This document shows, piece after piece, positions 42,837-56,489 of a stretch of DNA of 64,000 bases. Below the pieces are notes generated by a model. That model had not been told where the DNA came from. It ran no database searches and was given only the letters and a program-made list of their open reading frames with translations. This DNA comes from Verrucomicrobia bacterium S94. GTDB lineage: Bacteria; Verrucomicrobiota; Kiritimatiellia; Kiritimatiellales; Pontiellaceae. Made by a program: the position numbers and the translations under genes. Positions within the stretch are counted from its first letter, which is position 1. The number at the start of each line of letters is the position of its first letter. The stretch covers positions 558,001-622,000 of the forward strand of contig CP036201.1 in the NCBI GenBank assembly GCA_004299845.1, given 5' to 3'.

Positions 42837-43936
42837 ATGAGTAAGCTTGAAGTGAAGCCGGCCGAGGAGTGCCGTTATGATATTCTTTCGTTGGGCGAAG
42901 TGATGCTTCGTCTTGATCCGGGGGAGGGCCGGATTCGTACTGCCCGCCAATTCCGCGCCTGGGAGGGCGGAGGCGAATATAATGTGGCACGTGGTCTGCG
43001 CCGCTGTTTCGGGCAGCGTGCCGGTGTGGTTACCGCTTTCGCGAAGAATGAAGTTGGGCTGCTGATGGAGGATTTTATCCTGCAGGGCGGAGTGGATACG
43101 TCGCTCATTAAATGGATGGATTATGACGGTATCGGTCGGACTGTTCGCAACGGACTGAATTTCACGGAGCGCGGTTTCGGCATTCGCGGTGCTGTCGGTT
43201 GCTCGGATCGTGGTAATACAGCGGCTTCGCAGCTCAAAGCCGGTGATATTGACTGGGAATATATCTTCGGTACGCTGGGCGTTCGCTGGTTTCACACGGG
43301 GGCATTTTCGCGGCTCTTTCCGAAACCACGGGTGAAGTGGTGATTGAAGCGGCGAAGACCGCGAAAAAATATGGAACGATTGTGTCCTACGACCTTAACT
43401 ATCGGCCGTCGCTCTGGAAAGGTTTCGGTGGGCAGGAAAAATGCCGGGAGATCAATCGCGAGATTGCAAAGTATGTTGATGTTATGATCGGTAACGAAGA
43501 GGATTTTACGGCCTGTCTCGGTTTTGAAGTTGAAGGGGCGGATGAGAATCTGACCGATCTGGAAGTCGGCGCTTTTCAGAAAATGATCAAAAAAGCGGTT
43601 GCTGAATTTCCGAATTTCAAAGCAACTGCAACAACGATGCGCGGAGTGAAAACCGCCACGGTGAATGACTGGGGTGCGATGTGCTGGATCGACGGCGAAT
43701 TCTATACGTCTACGCATCGCCCGGAGCTGGAAATCATGGACCGTGTGGGCGGGGGCGACAGTTTTGCATCCGGTTTTATTTACGGTATGATGATTCTGAA
43801 GGATCCGAAGATGGCGATTGAGTACGGTGCAGCTCACGGTGCTCTGGCAATGACCACGCCGGGTGATACCACCATGGCGTCATTGAATGAAGTCGAGAAA
43901 ATTGTGGCCGGTGCCGGTGCACGGGTGGATCGGTAA
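42837..43936 (+). CDS. kdgK: 2-keto-3-deoxygluconate kinase (PfkB family), interrupted by one missing base
   Basis: Phosphorylates KDG to KDPG, which the next gene's product cleaves. The N-terminal part has LSLGEVMLRLDPGEG and WEGGGEYNVARGL. In a run of five G (43298-43302) the frame breaks after RWFHTG; with six G it continues GIFAALSETTGEVV and joins the rest, which holds SYDLNYRPSLWK and the PfkB catalytic motif VGGGDSFASGF. One added base gives 366 residues. The kinase is thus complete apart from a single-base loss, probably a homopolymer undercall. GGAG at 42826-42829 precedes the ATG. eda starts 38 bp downstream. Confidence 0.86.
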
Positions 43937-45612: not shown

Positions 45613-45701
45613 GGGAAATCTCCATTAAACAGCACTCCAATTTAGCGGATATGTGACGTTCTTTCAATATCAGGAAAACTTGAATCATGGAAAGGGCGTT
45701 G

Positions 45702-47216
45702 ATGATGAAAAAGGGATTGGTTGTCGTAGGAGTAGTATTGCTGGGCCTGGGGGTGTTTGCGGGGCGGCCGAATATTGTCTGGATTTTTTCAGATGATCAC
45801 TCGTATCAGACGATCGGTGCATACGGCGGGCGTTTGGCGTCGTTGAATCCTTCGCCGAACATTGACCGCATTGCCGAGCAGGGCATACGTTTTGACCGTG
45901 CGTACGTCGGAAATTCAATCTGCGCCCCGAGCCGTGCGACGTTGCTGACCGGTAAGCACAGTCATATGAACGGGAAGTATGTGAACTGGAAGACGAATCC
46001 GTTTGATCACGATCAGCAGCAGTTCCAGAAGATTCTGCAGAAGCATGGCTATCAGACGGTCATGATTGGGAAGATTCATCTCAATGGAAAGATGCAGGGA
46101 TTTGACTACTGGGAGGTGCTGCCGGGACAGGGAAAATATTACAGTCCTGATTTTATCACGGAAAACGGAACCACGAGATATCCAGGGCGTTATGTAACGG
46201 ATGTGATTACAGAACGTGCGCTGAACTGGCTCGAGAATGGGCGGGATAGAGATAAACCTTTCATGCTGATGGTTCACCACAAGGCGCCGCACCGGAACTG
46301 GGAACCGGTGGATCGGCATATGAGCAAATATGCCGATATTGAAATTCCGGAGCCGGAGAATCTTTTTGACGAGTATATCAGCCGTGGAGCGGCGGCGAAC
46401 GGGCAGGATATGAGTATTGATCAAACAATGACGCTCGATAATGATCTGAAAGCAGATGGAGAGAAATACGCGGGGAATTCCCGCTATGCCGCCCGGCAGA
46501 AATGGTTTGCGGAACATCACCCCGAAGGGCGTGAGCTTGTGCAGTGGAAATATCAGACCTATATGAAGGATTATATGCGCTGTACGTGGGCGGTGGATGA
46601 AAGTGTCGGTCGGATTCTGCAGGCGTTGAAAGAGCAGGGGCTGAGTGAGAATACGATTATTTTCTATTCATCGGATCAGGGTTTTTATATGGGTGAACAC
46701 GGCTGGTTCGATAAGCGGTTTATGTATGAAGAATCGTTCCGCACACCGCTGCTTGCAATGTGGCCGGGAAAAATCAGACCAGGATCGGTTAACAGCGATC
46801 TGGTGCAGAATATTGATTTCGCAGAGACCTTTCTGGATCTGGCTGGTGCGCCGGTGCCCGATGACATGCAGGGACGGAGTCTGGTACCTTTGCTGAAAGG
46901 GGAGACGCCGGATGATTGGCGGGAGTCGTTATATTATCACTACTATGAATATCCGGGAGCGCATTCGGTACGCCGGCATGAAGGGGTTTTTGACGGGCGC
47001 TGGAAGCTGATTCGGTTTTATGGAAAAGATGTACCCGACGCAGAGGAATGGGAGCTTTATGATTTGCAGAATGATCCGGCGGAGATGATGAATGTGTATT
47101 CCAATCCGGAGAATTCCGTGCAGATTAAGCGCTTGAAGAACGAACTGAACGTTTTGAAGAAGCGGTATGAAGTACCGGATGAAATGTTTGATGTGGAGTC
47201 CCTTAGAAAGAAATAA
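45702..47216 (+). CDS. Secreted sulfatase, formylglycine type (second copy)
   Basis: A 504-residue exported sulfatase (counted from 45702) with signal peptide MMKKGLVVVGVVLLG. Metal ligands begin with FSDDH, the modified residue is Cys74 in SICAPSRATLLTG, and MIGKIHL, MLMVHHKAPHRNW and SDQGFYMGEHGWFDKR are typical of choline/iduronate-type relatives in the S1 family. An earlier ATG at 45687 is also preceded by AGGAAA and would add five residues. It differs clearly in sequence from the sulfatase at 15686, so the two probably act on different sulfate esters. No other polysaccharide gene is next to it. Confidence 0.92.
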   Translation: MMKKGLVVVGVVLLGLGVFAGRPNIVWIFSDDHSYQTIGAYGGRLASLNPSPNIDRIAEQGIRFDRAYVGNSICAPSRATLLTGKHSHMNGKYVNWKTNPFDHDQQQFQKILQKHGYQTVMIGKIHLNGKMQGFDYWEVLPGQGKYYSPDFITENGTTRYPGRYVTDVITERALNWLENGRDRDKPFMLMVHHKAPHRNWEPVDRHMSKYADIEIPEPENLFDEYISRGAAANGQDMSIDQTMTLDNDLKADGEKYAGNSRYAARQKWFAEHHPEGRELVQWKYQTYMKDYMRCTWAVDESVGRILQALKEQGLSENTIIFYSSDQGFYMGEHGWFDKRFMYEESFRTPLLAMWPGKIRPGSVNSDLVQNIDFAETFLDLAGAPVPDDMQGRSLVPLLKGETPDDWRESLYYHYYEYPGAHSVRRHEGVFDGRWKLIRFYGKDVPDAEEWELYDLQNDPAEMMNVYSNPENSVQIKRLKNELNVLKKRYEVPDEMFDVESLRKK

Positions 47217-47312
47217 ATCTAAATAGGCCCGCCGCTTTAATTTCAGTTGAACGCGCCGCCAAAAACCATTTCAATCTCCGAATCGTTCTGAAAATATCGA
47301 ATTTGGAGAAAC

Positions 47313-47651
47313 ATGGAATTATTACGCATAGCTCACGCTCTTGATGCGGAGTTGATTTACGGGCCCGACGGCTGGGAGCACATACCGATTGAATCCGTTT
47401 TCGCCTCGGATCTCATGAGCGATGTGCTGATGAGTGATCGAGAGGAGATGCTATTAATTACTTCGCTTTCGACCGAGCAGTCGATCCGTTCCGCCGGCAT
47501 TGTCGGTGCGAAAGCGGTTGTGATTGCCAATCATAAAACGGTTGCTGCAGGCATGATTGAACTGGCGGAAGATCAGGAAATCGCTCTGTTTGTTACGCGT
47601 CATCCGAAGTATGAAGCCTCGGTTTGTATCGGGCGAATTATGGAACCCTGA
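47313..47651 (+). CDS. DRTGG-domain protein, first copy
   Basis: A 112-residue stand-alone DRTGG domain. The family pattern is seen in ASDLMSDVLMSDREEMLLIT, IRSAGIVGAKAVVIANHK and IALFVTRHPKYEA. DRTGG domains are regulatory units of unknown ligand, found in some phosphotransacetylases and beside hydrogenase genes. TTGGAGAAA precedes the ATG. Its stop overlaps the next start (TGATG), so translation is coupled. It is the first of four genes that form one compact module ending at 49612. Confidence 0.8.
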   Translation: MELLRIAHALDAELIYGPDGWEHIPIESVFASDLMSDVLMSDREEMLLITSLSTEQSIRSAGIVGAKAVVIANHKTVAAGMIELAEDQEIALFVTRHPKYEASVCIGRIMEP

Positions 47652-48583
47652 TGAGCAGTGGAGCCAAACAGCCGCTTCAGTCTTCGCTCCGGGTTCAGGA
47701 GCTGCTTTACGGTCTCCGGATCAGTGAGGTGATGACCCATAAGGTTTTTGCTGTTTCCAGAAACTGCACCATGCGTGATGTTCGCGTGATTATGCGGAAT
47801 AACGAAATCAGCGGAGTGCCCGTTGTGGATAACAAACGGGTGGTCGGCATTGTAACGATGAACGACCTGATGAATGCGCTCGAAGAAGGGGCGCTTGATG
47901 ACTGCGTGATTAGCTGGATGTCGGGCGAAGTTCAGACGCTGGCTGAAGATATGCCGCTTTCATTCGCTATTTCCGCCTTTGGGAAATTTTCATTCCGTCA
48001 GTTTCCGGTGGTGAATAAAGCCAATGAACTGACGGGCATTCTGACGTTCCGTAACATCAACCATGCATTGATTCGGGAACTTTCCCGGCAGCTGCGGGAA
48101 ATGGAACAGCAGAGCGAAAATCCGCCGGAGCCTGATTCTCTTCAGCTTACCAGAGTGTATCAGCTGGCCCGCTATGATTTTGAAAACGGCGGCAAAGCAT
48201 CGAGTGCCATCAAAAAATTTCTGCAGTCACGAGGTGTTCCGCCGAAGCTGGTTCGCCGGGTTGCGGTTGCCGGCTATGAGCTGGAAATTAATCTGGTCGC
48301 GCATTCCATTGGCGGGATGCTGGGATTTGATATTAATGAAGAGCGCGTTAAAATTTCATCGCATGACCGCGGGCCGGGTATTGAAAATATTGAAGATGCG
48401 CTGACTGAAGGGTTTTCAACGGCCAACGAGTGGATTCGTTCGCAGGGATTCGGGGCAGGTATGGGGTTGCCGAACGTGAAACGGGTGGCAGATAAATTTG
48501 CAATCGAATCCGCTGTGGGAATGGGGACGATGGTGCAGGCTGTTATTTATTTGAAACAGGAGAAGGCACATGAAGATCAGTGA
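47651..48583 (+). CDS. CBS-pair protein with RsbT/anti-sigma-type ATPase domain
   Basis: A 310-residue cytoplasmic fusion. Residues ~22-145 are two CBS motifs (ISEVMTHKVFAVSRNCTMRDV, split; GVPVVDNKRVVGIVTMNDLM; FRQFPVVNKANELTGILT), which usually bind adenine nucleotides. Residues ~175-300 are a GHKL/HATPase domain: N-box ELEINLVAHSIGG, G1 HDRGPGIEN and G2 GFGAGMGLPNVKR, closest to RsbT/RsbW serine kinases. No His phospho-acceptor is present, so it is not a normal histidine kinase. Starts inside the stop of the first DRTGG gene and overlaps the second by 14 bp. Confidence 0.85.
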   Translation: MSSGAKQPLQSSLRVQELLYGLRISEVMTHKVFAVSRNCTMRDVRVIMRNNEISGVPVVDNKRVVGIVTMNDLMNALEEGALDDCVISWMSGEVQTLAEDMPLSFAISAFGKFSFRQFPVVNKANELTGILTFRNINHALIRELSRQLREMEQQSENPPEPDSLQLTRVYQLARYDFENGGKASSAIKKFLQSRGVPPKLVRRVAVAGYELEINLVAHSIGGMLGFDINEERVKISSHDRGPGIENIEDALTEGFSTANEWIRSQGFGAGMGLPNVKRVADKFAIESAVGMGTMVQAVIYLKQEKAHEDQ

Positions 48584-48914
48584 TATTGAAGCTCTGGATC
48601 AGTTTACCTGTCTGCAGGATACCTATACCGATGTTGAAATCGAAGCGGGGTATACTTCTGATTTGCTCAGCGATGTAATGGCCCATGCGGAGGAAAAATC
48701 GGTGTTGATCACGATTCAGGCCCATAAAAATACCGTGGCGGTTTCTTCGCTGGCAGGTGTTGCTGCCATTATTATCTGCAACAACCGTCCGGTTCCGGAA
48801 GATATGATTTCTGCTGCCGCCGAGGAAGGGATTGCCGTTTTTAAAACAGCGGGGAATCAGTTTGAGACCTCCGCGCTGATTGCCCATTACCTCGGCGGGA
48901 CTTCGGCTGCGTAG
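48570..48914 (+). CDS. DRTGG-domain protein, second copy
   Basis: A 114-residue DRTGG domain with TSDLLSDVMAHAEEKSVLIT, VSSLAGVAAIIICNNR and GIAVFKTAGNQFETSA, paralogous to the gene at 47313. The two flank the CBS-ATPase gene. It begins 14 bp inside the CBS-ATPase gene and is followed after 9 bp by the PHP gene. Confidence 0.78.
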   Translation: MKISDIEALDQFTCLQDTYTDVEIEAGYTSDLLSDVMAHAEEKSVLITIQAHKNTVAVSSLAGVAAIIICNNRPVPEDMISAAAEEGIAVFKTAGNQFETSALIAHYLGGTSAA

Positions 48915-48923
48915 GGACGGACG

Positions 48924-49612
48924 ATGAGCTATCGAGCGGATTTTCATATTCACAGCTGTCTGTCTCCCTGTGCGTCGCTGGAGATGTCGCCCGCCGCCAT
49001 CGTGAAAGCGGCAAACGCTGCGGGACTGAATGCGCTGGCATTGACCGATCACAACTGCACCTTCAATCTTCCGGCATTCGGAGCCGTCTGCGACCGTCTC
49101 GGTATGGAATGTCTCTATGGGATGGAGGTTACTTCTGTTGAAGAAGTGCATATACTCTGTTTATTTGATCGCCTTGAAGTGGCGATGAAAATGGGGGCTC
49201 TGGTGTATGAAAGTCTGCCCGATATTCCGAACCGGCCCGAAAAATTCGGAGATCAGCCGATTATTGACGAAGAGGAAGGAATCCTGGGGTTTGCTGAAAA
49301 GTTTCTGATCAGCGCATCAGGATTTGATGTTTCAACGCTGGTGAACGAGGTACACGCGCTCGGCGGGCTGGTGATTCCGGCTCACATCGACCGGTTGGTC
49401 TACGGCATTATTGCCCAGCTCGGTTTCCTGCCGGACGAATCGTTTGATGCTGTGGAGTTGACGGCCTGTGGCGATCCTGCATTGGCGGGGGGTACCCCGT
49501 TATCCGAAGTTCGGATTCGCACTGCTTAAACATGTTGGGTACGGCGCACACCGATCTGGAAATAGGAAGTCTTTCGGTTGATGCGGTGCGCTCCGGGCTA
49601 CAGCATACGTGA
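48924..49612 (+). CDS. PHP-domain metal-dependent phosphoesterase, interrupted by one missing base
   Basis: A TrpH/polymerase-type PHP hydrolase expected to use two or three metal ions. Metal motifs are FHIHSCLSPC, LTDHNC and YGMEVTS, with IPAHID later. In a run of six G (49487-49492) the frame breaks after ALAG; with seven G it continues GYPVIRSSDSHCLNMLG, supplying the last metal motif SSDSH, and ends at TGA 49610-49612 (229 residues). The missing base is most likely an assembly error. It closes the four-gene DRTGG/CBS-ATPase module. Substrate unknown; nucleotides or phospho-proteins are possible. Confidence 0.85.
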
Positions 49613-54758: not shown

Positions 54759-56489
54759 ATGAAGAGGTTGGTAGGAGTATGCTGGATGTGCTGGGTTGCG
54801 ATGATCGCGCAGGCCAATGATTTTAAAGTCGCGGCGAATGACGGAGCGATCACGATCACAGGGTATACCGGTGATGGCGGTGATATCACCATTCCGGATG
54901 TAATAGATGGGTTGCCGGTTACCCGCATCGGGGACCGTGCGTTTTACGATTGCACCGAGCTGACCGGGGTGACGATCTCTTCCAACGTTACAACGATCGG
55001 ATATTCCGCATTTAAGGATTGTACCGAGCTGACCACTGTGACGATCCCCTCCGGCGTCAGTACGATTAATAATTCGGCTTTCTACAATTGTTCGAGTCTG
55101 ACCAACATGGTGATTCCCGTTGGCGTCACCCGCATTGGCGAAGATGTGTTCTACAAATGTTACAGTTTGGTCCGTGTGACGATTCCTGCCGGTGTGACCA
55201 CAATTCAAAGGGGCGCATTTTATAACTGCTCGAGTCTGACCGGTGTGATGATTCCTGAAGGAGTTACTTCTATCGGGCATTCAGCGTTCGACGGTTGCTC
55301 CAGTCTGAGTAGCGCTTCGATTCCCTCCAGCGTCACCTCTATTGGAGGTTACGCATTTTACGGATGCTCCAAGCTGACCCGTGTTGTGATTCCCGCCGGT
55401 GTTGTCTCTATTGGGGATTATGCATTCGACCGTTGTTCAAAGCTGACGAATCTAACGGTGGATGAGGAAAACCCGAACTACAGCAGCGAGGACGGTGTGC
55501 TCTTCGATAAATTAAAAACCATGCTGATCAAATATCCCGGAGGCAGGAACGGAGCCTATGTGATTCCCTCCGGCGTCACCACGATTGGGGATTCCGCGTT
55601 CTCCTATTGTTCCGGGCTGACTCATGTCACGATCCCCTCCAGTGTTACAACGATCGGGAGCTCTTCTTTCAATCATTGCAAGGGACTGATGGAGGTGACT
55701 ATTCATCCCGGGGTTACCACGATTGGGAGTTCTGCGTTTTACTGCTGTTCCGAGTTGACCCGCGTGACTCTTCCATCGAGCGTTATCACGATAGAGGACG
55801 TGGCGTTTGGGCATTGTGACCGTTTGGCCCATGTAACGATTCCCTCCAGTGTTACTACGATTGAGGATCAGGCGTTTTACCAATGCGTCGCGCTAACGGA
55901 GGTTACGATTCCTGCCAGTGTTACTTTGGTTGGGAGCAGTGCATTCAGTGGTTGTTCCGGGTTGACGAGCGCAACTTTTTTAGGTCATGCCCCGGCCGTG
56001 GGCTATATGATTTTTTATAACACAGCGGGTGATTTTACGGTCTATTATTATGCGGGGCGCACGGGATTCTCCACTCCGTTTTGGGAGGGGTATCCATCTT
56101 CAGAACTGGATATGCCGCCATTGTATGGGTTTGATCTGTGGGCAGAAGAACACGGTTTGGTTGGAGGCCGGGGAATGCTGTTTCGTCAGGATCGGAATGG
56201 CGACGGCATCCCCAATGGGCTGGAGTACACATTTGGAACGAATTGTCCCGCCACGAGTTCTTTGGTGAAAATTTTCCGGACAACGAATGGTTGCATGGTG
56301 GTGGAAACCCCGAAACAGGAAGAATCTACACAGCCTTATGTGACGGTTCAGGTTCGGGGCAGCACAAACCTTGTGGACTGGACGTTTCCGGTTGCTCCGA
56401 CCAATGGTGCTCCTGCCGGATATGAGTGGTTTTCGGGGGATGATGCTGAAAAAGTGTTTTTCAAACTGGAGGCTGTATTGACGGAATAA
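54759..56489 (+). CDS. BspA-type leucine-rich repeat surface protein
   Basis: A 576-residue exported protein with signal peptide (residues 1-19, ending AQA). Residues ~55-420 are 14 tandem BspA/TpLRR repeats of 23 residues with pattern V-T-x-IG-x-x-AF-x-x-C-x-x-L-x-x-V-x-IP, each with a Cys at the same place; repeat eight carries an insert with LFDKLKTMLIKYPGG. Near the C-terminus DRNGDGIPNGLE is a calcium-binding motif, common in secreted PVC proteins. Such proteins bind host or matrix molecules. The DNA repeat unit is 69 bp. It lies just behind tRNA-Ser and a transposase relic. Confidence 0.85.
   Translation: MKRLVGVCWMCWVAMIAQANDFKVAANDGAITITGYTGDGGDITIPDVIDGLPVTRIGDRAFYDCTELTGVTISSNVTTIGYSAFKDCTELTTVTIPSGVSTINNSAFYNCSSLTNMVIPVGVTRIGEDVFYKCYSLVRVTIPAGVTTIQRGAFYNCSSLTGVMIPEGVTSIGHSAFDGCSSLSSASIPSSVTSIGGYAFYGCSKLTRVVIPAGVVSIGDYAFDRCSKLTNLTVDEENPNYSSEDGVLFDKLKTMLIKYPGGRNGAYVIPSGVTTIGDSAFSYCSGLTHVTIPSSVTTIGSSSFNHCKGLMEVTIHPGVTTIGSSAFYCCSELTRVTLPSSVITIEDVAFGHCDRLAHVTIPSSVTTIEDQAFYQCVALTEVTIPASVTLVGSSAFSGCSGLTSATFLGHAPAVGYMIFYNTAGDFTVYYYAGRTGFSTPFWEGYPSSELDMPPLYGFDLWAEEHGLVGGRGMLFRQDRNGDGIPNGLEYTFGTNCPATSSLVKIFRTTNGCMVVETPKQEESTQPYVTVQVRGSTNLVDWTFPVAPTNGAPAGYEWFSGDDAEKVFFKLEAVLTE

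What the first reader, a model, noticed from the sequence alone, without database searches (positions are those of the whole stretch)
47313..49612. Compact DRTGG / CBS-ATPase / DRTGG / PHP module without its usual hydrogenase
Four genes with one-base or 14-bp overlaps encode two paralogous DRTGG domains, a CBS-pair joined to an RsbT-like ATPase, and a PHP phosphoesterase. Such sets are known to me beside electron-bifurcating [FeFe]-hydrogenase or NuoEF-like genes in anaerobes, yet here the neighbours are a sulfatase and a NYN protein. The parts suggest a sensing circuit: CBS binds adenine nucleotides, the ATPase could phosphorylate a partner, the PHP enzyme could reverse it, and the DRTGG pair may be the sensor or target. 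To my knowledge no biochemical role has been shown.
Basis: partly seen in the sequence, partly recalled or inferred. Interest (0 to 1): 0.65.

Follow-up and report, generated by a model that had tools for sequence, protein, structure and literature searches.

The report
Unlinked regulatory module for bifurcating hydrogenase

Summary
An operon of D1 (DRTGG), CBS pair–SpoIIAB-like ATPase, D2 (DRTGG) and PHP phosphoesterase lies at 47313–49612. One correction: the PHP frame breaks at a six-G run (49487–49492). No relative has this break, and a nearby kinase gene shows a second single-G loss, so a sequencing error is likely.
The title is misleading. The same genome carries hydCEDBA, the trimeric [FeFe]-hydrogenase set with rex, about 160 kb away. 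In the sister family the module sits directly beside rex–hydCEDBA.
In 28 genomes of the genus, the module never occurs without the HydA ortholog (18 both, 3 HydA only, 0 module only, 7 neither). In a phylum draw, 35 of 36 module genomes have an [FeFe]-hydrogenase; the exception carries an HdrA-type NuoEF set. All 15 named genomes with an unlinked module carry a HydB homologue elsewhere. Some linked partners are formate dehydrogenase or HdrA types, so the module follows NuoEF-type electron-bifurcating enzymes, not hydrogenase alone.
Best mechanism (inferred): CBS domains read adenylates and gate a SpoIIAB-like kinase acting on a D1/D2 pair or the enzyme, with PHP reversing it. No step is biochemically shown. 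Association is well supported; mechanism is tentative.

The parts
47247..47275 (+). Putative sigma70-type promoter of the operon: TTGAAC-N17-TTCAAT, about 38 bp before D1
   Evidence: Recurs upstream of D1 in the 14 genus relatives inspected while flanks diverge; only match in the window to a pattern written from it, though 0.44 expected by chance
47313..47651 (+). D1, DRTGG-fold protein, 112 aa
   Evidence: Pfam below cut-off; profile match to the DRTGG part of 3l2b, E 0.0012; model pLDDT 95.9, PDB 2ioj TM 0.85
47651..48583 (+). CBS pair (two CBS domains) fused to a SpoIIAB-like HATPase domain, 310 aa
   Evidence: Pfam; conservation in 110 sequences; structural matches AcuB/CBS and SpoIIAB 1til
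48194..48544 (+). HATPase_c_2 domain (residues 182-298) with N box E210/N214, G1 D239-G241-G243, G2 GFGAGMG 266-272
48570..48914 (+). D2, DRTGG protein, 114 aa, paralogue of D1
   Evidence: Pfam above cut-off; D1/D2 split with 100/100 support, 2 of 162 tips misplaced
48924..49529 (+). PHP metallo-phosphoesterase, N-terminal frame (201 aa as read)
   Evidence: Pfam 2.2e-10; metal-ligand residues 99-100% conserved; nearest PDB 2yb1, 3e0f
49487..49492 (+). G6 run, one base short relative to relatives: PHP frame breaks here (probable sequencing indel)
   Evidence: analogous G-run break in the kdgK gene near 43297
49490..49612 (+). PHP C-terminus in the other frame, with the last metal ligands SSDSH, to the stop at 49612

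Best explanation
The operon is an accessory control module for NuoEF-type electron-bifurcating oxidoreductases; in this genome the client is the trimeric [FeFe]-hydrogenase hydCEDBA 160 kb away, served in trans. Shown here: domain content, intact ATP and metal sites across relatives, linkage in the sister family, and genome-level dependence on the client enzyme. Inferred: the CBS pair binds adenine nucleotides and gates the SpoIIAB-like ATPase; the ATPase phosphorylates, or binds in an ATP-dependent way, a D1/D2 pair and/or a subunit of the bifurcating enzyme (the HATPase of the hyd operon, HydE, is a candidate); PHP reverses the modification or removes the signalling nucleotide. The effect would be to match NADH/ferredoxin/H2 electron flow to energy charge.
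For: hydCEDBA and rex elsewhere in the genome. The sister family f2 has rex-D1-ATPase-D2-PHP divergent from hydCEDBA. Genus co-occurrence 18/3/0/7, nominal Fisher p 1e-4. Phylum draw: 35 of 36 module genomes have PF02906 against 98 of 195 others, nominal p 8e-9; the exception G158 has HydB/HydC/HydD plus an HdrA-like subunit in the same locus. All 15 unlinked named genomes have a HydB homologue, 12 with adjacent [FeFe] HydA. Partners also include FdhA- and HdrA-type subunits. ATP-site boxes and CBS G-x-x-[ST] motifs are conserved. The ATPase half matches SpoIIAB 1til and the CBS half AcuB with AMP/ADP/ATP/Ap4A. CBS-PPases with CBS+DRTGG are inhibited by AMP/ADP and activated by ATP/ApnA (PMC11172384). 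One natural PHP-HydE fusion ORF (L143).
Against: No biochemical or expression data. No target residue is identified: D1 and D2 are conserved but no phospho-acceptor is evident. No shared Rex-like operator was found upstream of the module and hydC in this genome. Co-occurrence p-values ignore shared ancestry. HydA-positive genomes without the module exist (G003, G007, G010 and others), so it is not strictly required. G041 has the module but no HydA ortholog was found (81% complete). The CBS-ATPase model is only moderately confident (pTM 0.47). In CBS-PPases the DRTGG domain is reported hardly to play a part in regulation (PMC11172384).
Confidence: 0.5

Rival explanations
1. Assembly or repair factor: the GHKL ATPase acts as a chaperone-like machine with D1/D2 during flavin/Fe-S assembly of the NuoEF subunits, and PHP removes a damaged or inhibitory nucleotide.
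For: Association with NuoEF-type enzymes whatever the catalytic subunit ([FeFe], FdhA, HdrA), as expected of a factor acting on the shared flavin/Fe-S core; not required in every HydA genome.
Against: A CBS adenylate sensor and a SpoIIAB-like rather than Hsp90-like domain fit signalling better; no chaperone feature found.
Confidence: 0.25
2. Partner-switching transcription control: the SpoIIAB/RsbW-like domain is an anti-sigma factor and the DRTGG proteins act as anti-anti-sigma factors, setting expression of the hyd operon.
For: Nearest ATPase structure is SpoIIAB; rex is part of the cluster in the sister family; the genome also has a PP2C/SpoIIE-like gene in the sensory-hydrogenase cluster.
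Against: No STAS or sigma-factor gene among the operon genes; DRTGG is not a STAS fold.
Confidence: 0.15
3. Independent or relic module that merely hitch-hikes with anaerobic metabolism and no longer serves the hydrogenase after being separated from it.
For: Unlinked, and PHP frame broken in this assembly.
Against: Gene set and order kept in all 13 genus loci compared, 65-92% protein identity, PHP in one frame in relatives; never without the HydA ortholog in the genus.
Confidence: 0.1

Closest known systems
Halanaerobium hydrogeniformans hydrogenase operon Halsa_1862-1871 (PMC4237134)
   Same: HydA, NuoF, ferredoxin-like, histidine kinase, NuoE, PHP protein, 'iron-sulfur binding hydrogenase', Fe-S domain protein and anti-sigma factor in one operon
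   Different: There linked to hydrogenase and, by its annotation, a stand-alone anti-sigma factor with a separate Fe-S protein; here a CBS-HATPase fusion, two DRTGG proteins, and unlinked
CBS-DRTGG inorganic pyrophosphatase (C. perfringens, 3l2b/3l31)
   Same: CBS pair and DRTGG domain in one regulatory unit; CBS reads AMP/ATP/ApnA
   Different: One polypeptide attached to a DHH pyrophosphatase; no HATPase or PHP
SpoIIAB / RsbW anti-sigma kinases (1til)
   Same: HATPase fold, N/G1/G2 boxes
   Different: Here fused to CBS; no STAS or sigma partner gene in the operon
AcuB (CBS adaptor, B. subtilis/Geobacillus, PMC13039410)
   Same: CBS protein in an Ap4A-dependent control system acting on a partner enzyme
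   Different: No ATPase domain; controls the deacetylase AcuC
Sensory [FeFe]-hydrogenase plus kinase genes beside bifurcating hydrogenases (PMC3561251)
   Same: Proposed regulatory genes beside trimeric hydrogenases
   Different: H-cluster protein as the sensor; in this genome that type lies in a separate cluster at 165-170 kb

Membership tests
DRTGG domain proteins (PF07085) | Score above the curated cut-off | tested here: inconclusive
   D2 28.5 bits, above 25.2; D1 19.9 bits, below
DRTGG domain proteins (PF07085) | DRTGG fold | tested here: met
   D1 model matches 2ioj (TM 0.85) and 3l31/3l2b; D1 profile to D2 hhalign E 8e-17
SpoIIAB/RsbW-type kinase | HATPase_c_2 domain with intact N, G1 and G2 boxes | tested here: met
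   28.7 bits vs 27.4; E210/N214/D239/G-boxes 96-100% conserved; 1til match
SpoIIAB/RsbW-type kinase | STAS anti-anti-sigma and sigma partner genes in the operon | tested here: not met
   Operon holds only DRTGG and PHP genes besides the ATPase
SpoIIAB/RsbW-type kinase | Protein kinase activity | not testable with these tools
   Needs biochemistry
PHP phosphoesterase | HxH, DH, E, H, DxH metal ligands | tested here: met
   99-100% conserved in 90 sequences; in the window assembly the last DxH lies after the frame break
Hydrogenase-linked DRTGG/ATPase/PHP module | Adjacent to hyd or NuoEF genes | tested here: not met
   Neighbours are a sulfatase and a NYN gene
Hydrogenase-linked DRTGG/ATPase/PHP module | Bifurcating-type hydrogenase genes present in the genome | tested here: met
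   hydCEDBA at G000:C1:439790-444782
Adenylate-binding CBS pair | G-h-x-[ST]-x-x-[DN] motif in each CBS | tested here: met
   G66/T69/D72 and G129/T132 conserved; the seventh position of the second motif is N in the window; binding itself not tested

The most novel reading that the evidence does not exclude
A general, previously undescribed post-translational switch, reading adenylates through CBS domains and acting through a GHKL kinase, a DRTGG heterodimer and a PHP phosphatase, that controls NuoEF-based flavin electron bifurcation (hydrogenase, formate dehydrogenase, HdrA types) across about ten or more bacterial phyla, in trans where unlinked.
Probability: 0.3. Interest if true: 0.8.

Novelty: new variant of a known kind. 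Interest (0 to 1): 0.5.

Why it matters
Electron-bifurcating enzymes set the energy budget of many anaerobes, and how they are regulated after synthesis is poorly known (own knowledge). A conserved four-gene module that tracks these enzymes even when unlinked gives a defined, testable candidate regulator, and extends the association from hydrogenase to formate dehydrogenase and HdrA-type partners.

Tried and rejected
Rex operator shared by hydC and the module: no convincing site upstream of D1. Genome-wide promoter pattern search: the pattern was mis-spaced and did not find even the window site, so its zero says nothing. Natural fusions: only one, PHP-HydE in L143. Literature: no paper in the held library was found that names this set as a system; DRTGG with hydrogenase gives one unrelated hit. 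A predicted Rex site before a PHP gene in Thermoanaerobacterium was not identified as this PHP.

Full report
OBSERVATION. Pfam supports CBS, HATPase_c_2/HATPase_c, DRTGG for D2, and PHP; D1 scores below the DRTGG cut-off. The D1 model (pLDDT 95.9) matches PDB 2ioj, annotated 'Pfam DRTGG', at TM 0.85, and the DRTGG part of the CBS-pyrophosphatase structures. D1 and D2 are ancient paralogues: on a tree of 162 sequences from many phyla the upstream and downstream copies separate with 100/100 support and two misplaced tips, both from loci that are cut or hold overlapping ORFs (my reading).

FRAME BREAK. The PHP frame ends at 49529, but the conserved C-terminus with the last metal ligands continues in another frame to 49612. 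Relatives read on in one frame; the window is one base short in a G6 run at 49487-49492. The PfkB/KDG-kinase gene at 42837-43936 is split in the same manner at a G run near 43297, while four relatives have one open frame of 371-388 aa. Two single-G losses in G runs within 7 kb suggest under-called homopolymers; this is inference.

WHERE THE HYDROGENASE IS. The window's genome (4.1 Mb, one contig) has three PF02906 matches. The one at 440 kb belongs to hydC (NuoE), hydE (HATPase), hydD (2Fe-2S), hydB (NuoF) and hydA, with rex divergent upstream. The module lies at 605-608 kb, about 160 kb away. Two further H-cluster proteins at 165-170 kb lie with a PP2C/SpoIIE-like gene, near rex and pyruvate formate-lyase genes (names are my reading of the sequences).

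LINKAGE IN RELATIVES. In the sister family (f2) and other families of the class, rex-D1-ATPase-D2-PHP runs divergently from hydCEDBA. In the window's genus the module sits in a stable neighbourhood, kdgK-kdgA-yceH'-(sulfatase in some)-module-NYN'-DAHP synthase. G015 of the same genus keeps the linked form and G019 has both about 23 kb apart, so separation appears derived. Of 32 named loci with full flanks, 17 have NuoEF/HydE genes nearby and 15 do not.

CO-OCCURRENCE. Genus (28 genomes): 18 with module and HydA ortholog, 3 HydA only, 0 module only, 7 neither (nominal Fisher p 1e-4). Phylum draw of 231 genomes: 36 have the full CBS-HATPase (above 200 bits); 35 of these have an [FeFe]-hydrogenase domain against 98 of the other 195 (nominal p 8e-9). 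The exception, G158, carries HydB, HydC, HydD and an HdrA-like subunit in the same locus. All 15 unlinked named genomes have a HydB homologue; in 12 a PF02906 gene lies next to it. The other three HydB-like hits (52-57%) could be other NuoF proteins. Relatedness is not corrected for, and several genomes are incomplete; G041 in the sister family has the module without a HydA ortholog found (81% complete).

MORE THAN HYDROGENASE. In many loci outside the Spirochaetota and Kiritimatiellota the partner catalytic subunit is not an H-cluster protein but FdhA-like (L124), NuoG/FdhA-like (L123, L132, L137, L150) or HdrA-like (L135, L136, L139, L149) (assignment by reading the sequence). The module therefore follows the NuoEF core.

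MECHANISM. In 110 sequences the N, G1 and G2 boxes are 96-100% conserved; the ATPase half matches SpoIIAB 1til (E 1.2e-8, TMt 0.76), the first non-CBS match listed, and the CBS half matches AcuB solved with AMP, ADP, ATP or Ap4A. [quoted passage not shown] PHP ligands are 99-100% conserved, with nearest solved relatives 2yb1 and 3e0f. The simplest reading is an adenylate-gated kinase with a reversing phosphatase, acting on D1/D2 or the enzyme. The target, the kinase activity and the direction of control are all inferred. The single PHP-HydE fusion ORF (L143) hints at a link to the HATPase of the hyd operon but may be a lost stop codon.

PRIOR KNOWLEDGE. A Halanaerobium paper lists a hydrogenase operon with PHP and anti-sigma genes (PMC4237134), and a meta-analysis notes kinase genes between sensory and bifurcating hydrogenases (PMC3561251). 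I found no study of the module as a system in the held library, which lacks most subscription journals.

VERDICT. A real, widely conserved module; its 'missing' hydrogenase is elsewhere in the genome. Association is strong, mechanism open.

Noticed in passing
window 42837-43936: PfkB-family (KDG) kinase split into two overlapping ORFs by a one-base loss at a G run near 43297; intact in four genus relatives. Suggests homopolymer errors in this assembly.
   Followed up: partly
L050:7353-12363 (G000:C1:165-170 kb): Two H-cluster (sensory-type) hydrogenase proteins with a PP2C/SpoIIE-like phosphatase and small 2Fe-2S proteins, near a second rex and pyruvate formate-lyase genes.
   Followed up: no
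L143:11273-12580: Single ORF joining PHP and the HydE-type HATPase in a planctomycete locus that also has HdrC-like and [NiFe]-hydrogenase-like genes.
   Followed up: partly
window 45687-47216: Sulfatase upstream of the module is present in only some genus relatives (L055, L057, L038), so it is an optional neighbour.
   Followed up: yes
L081:9090-9920: In Breznakiella homolactica a HAD-like hydrolase ORF lies between D1 and the CBS-ATPase; D1 has the same 1.5-kb offset in L080, L083 and L085.
   Followed up: no
window 54759-56489: BspA-like leucine-rich repeat protein (my reading of the repeats), 576 aa.
   Followed up: no
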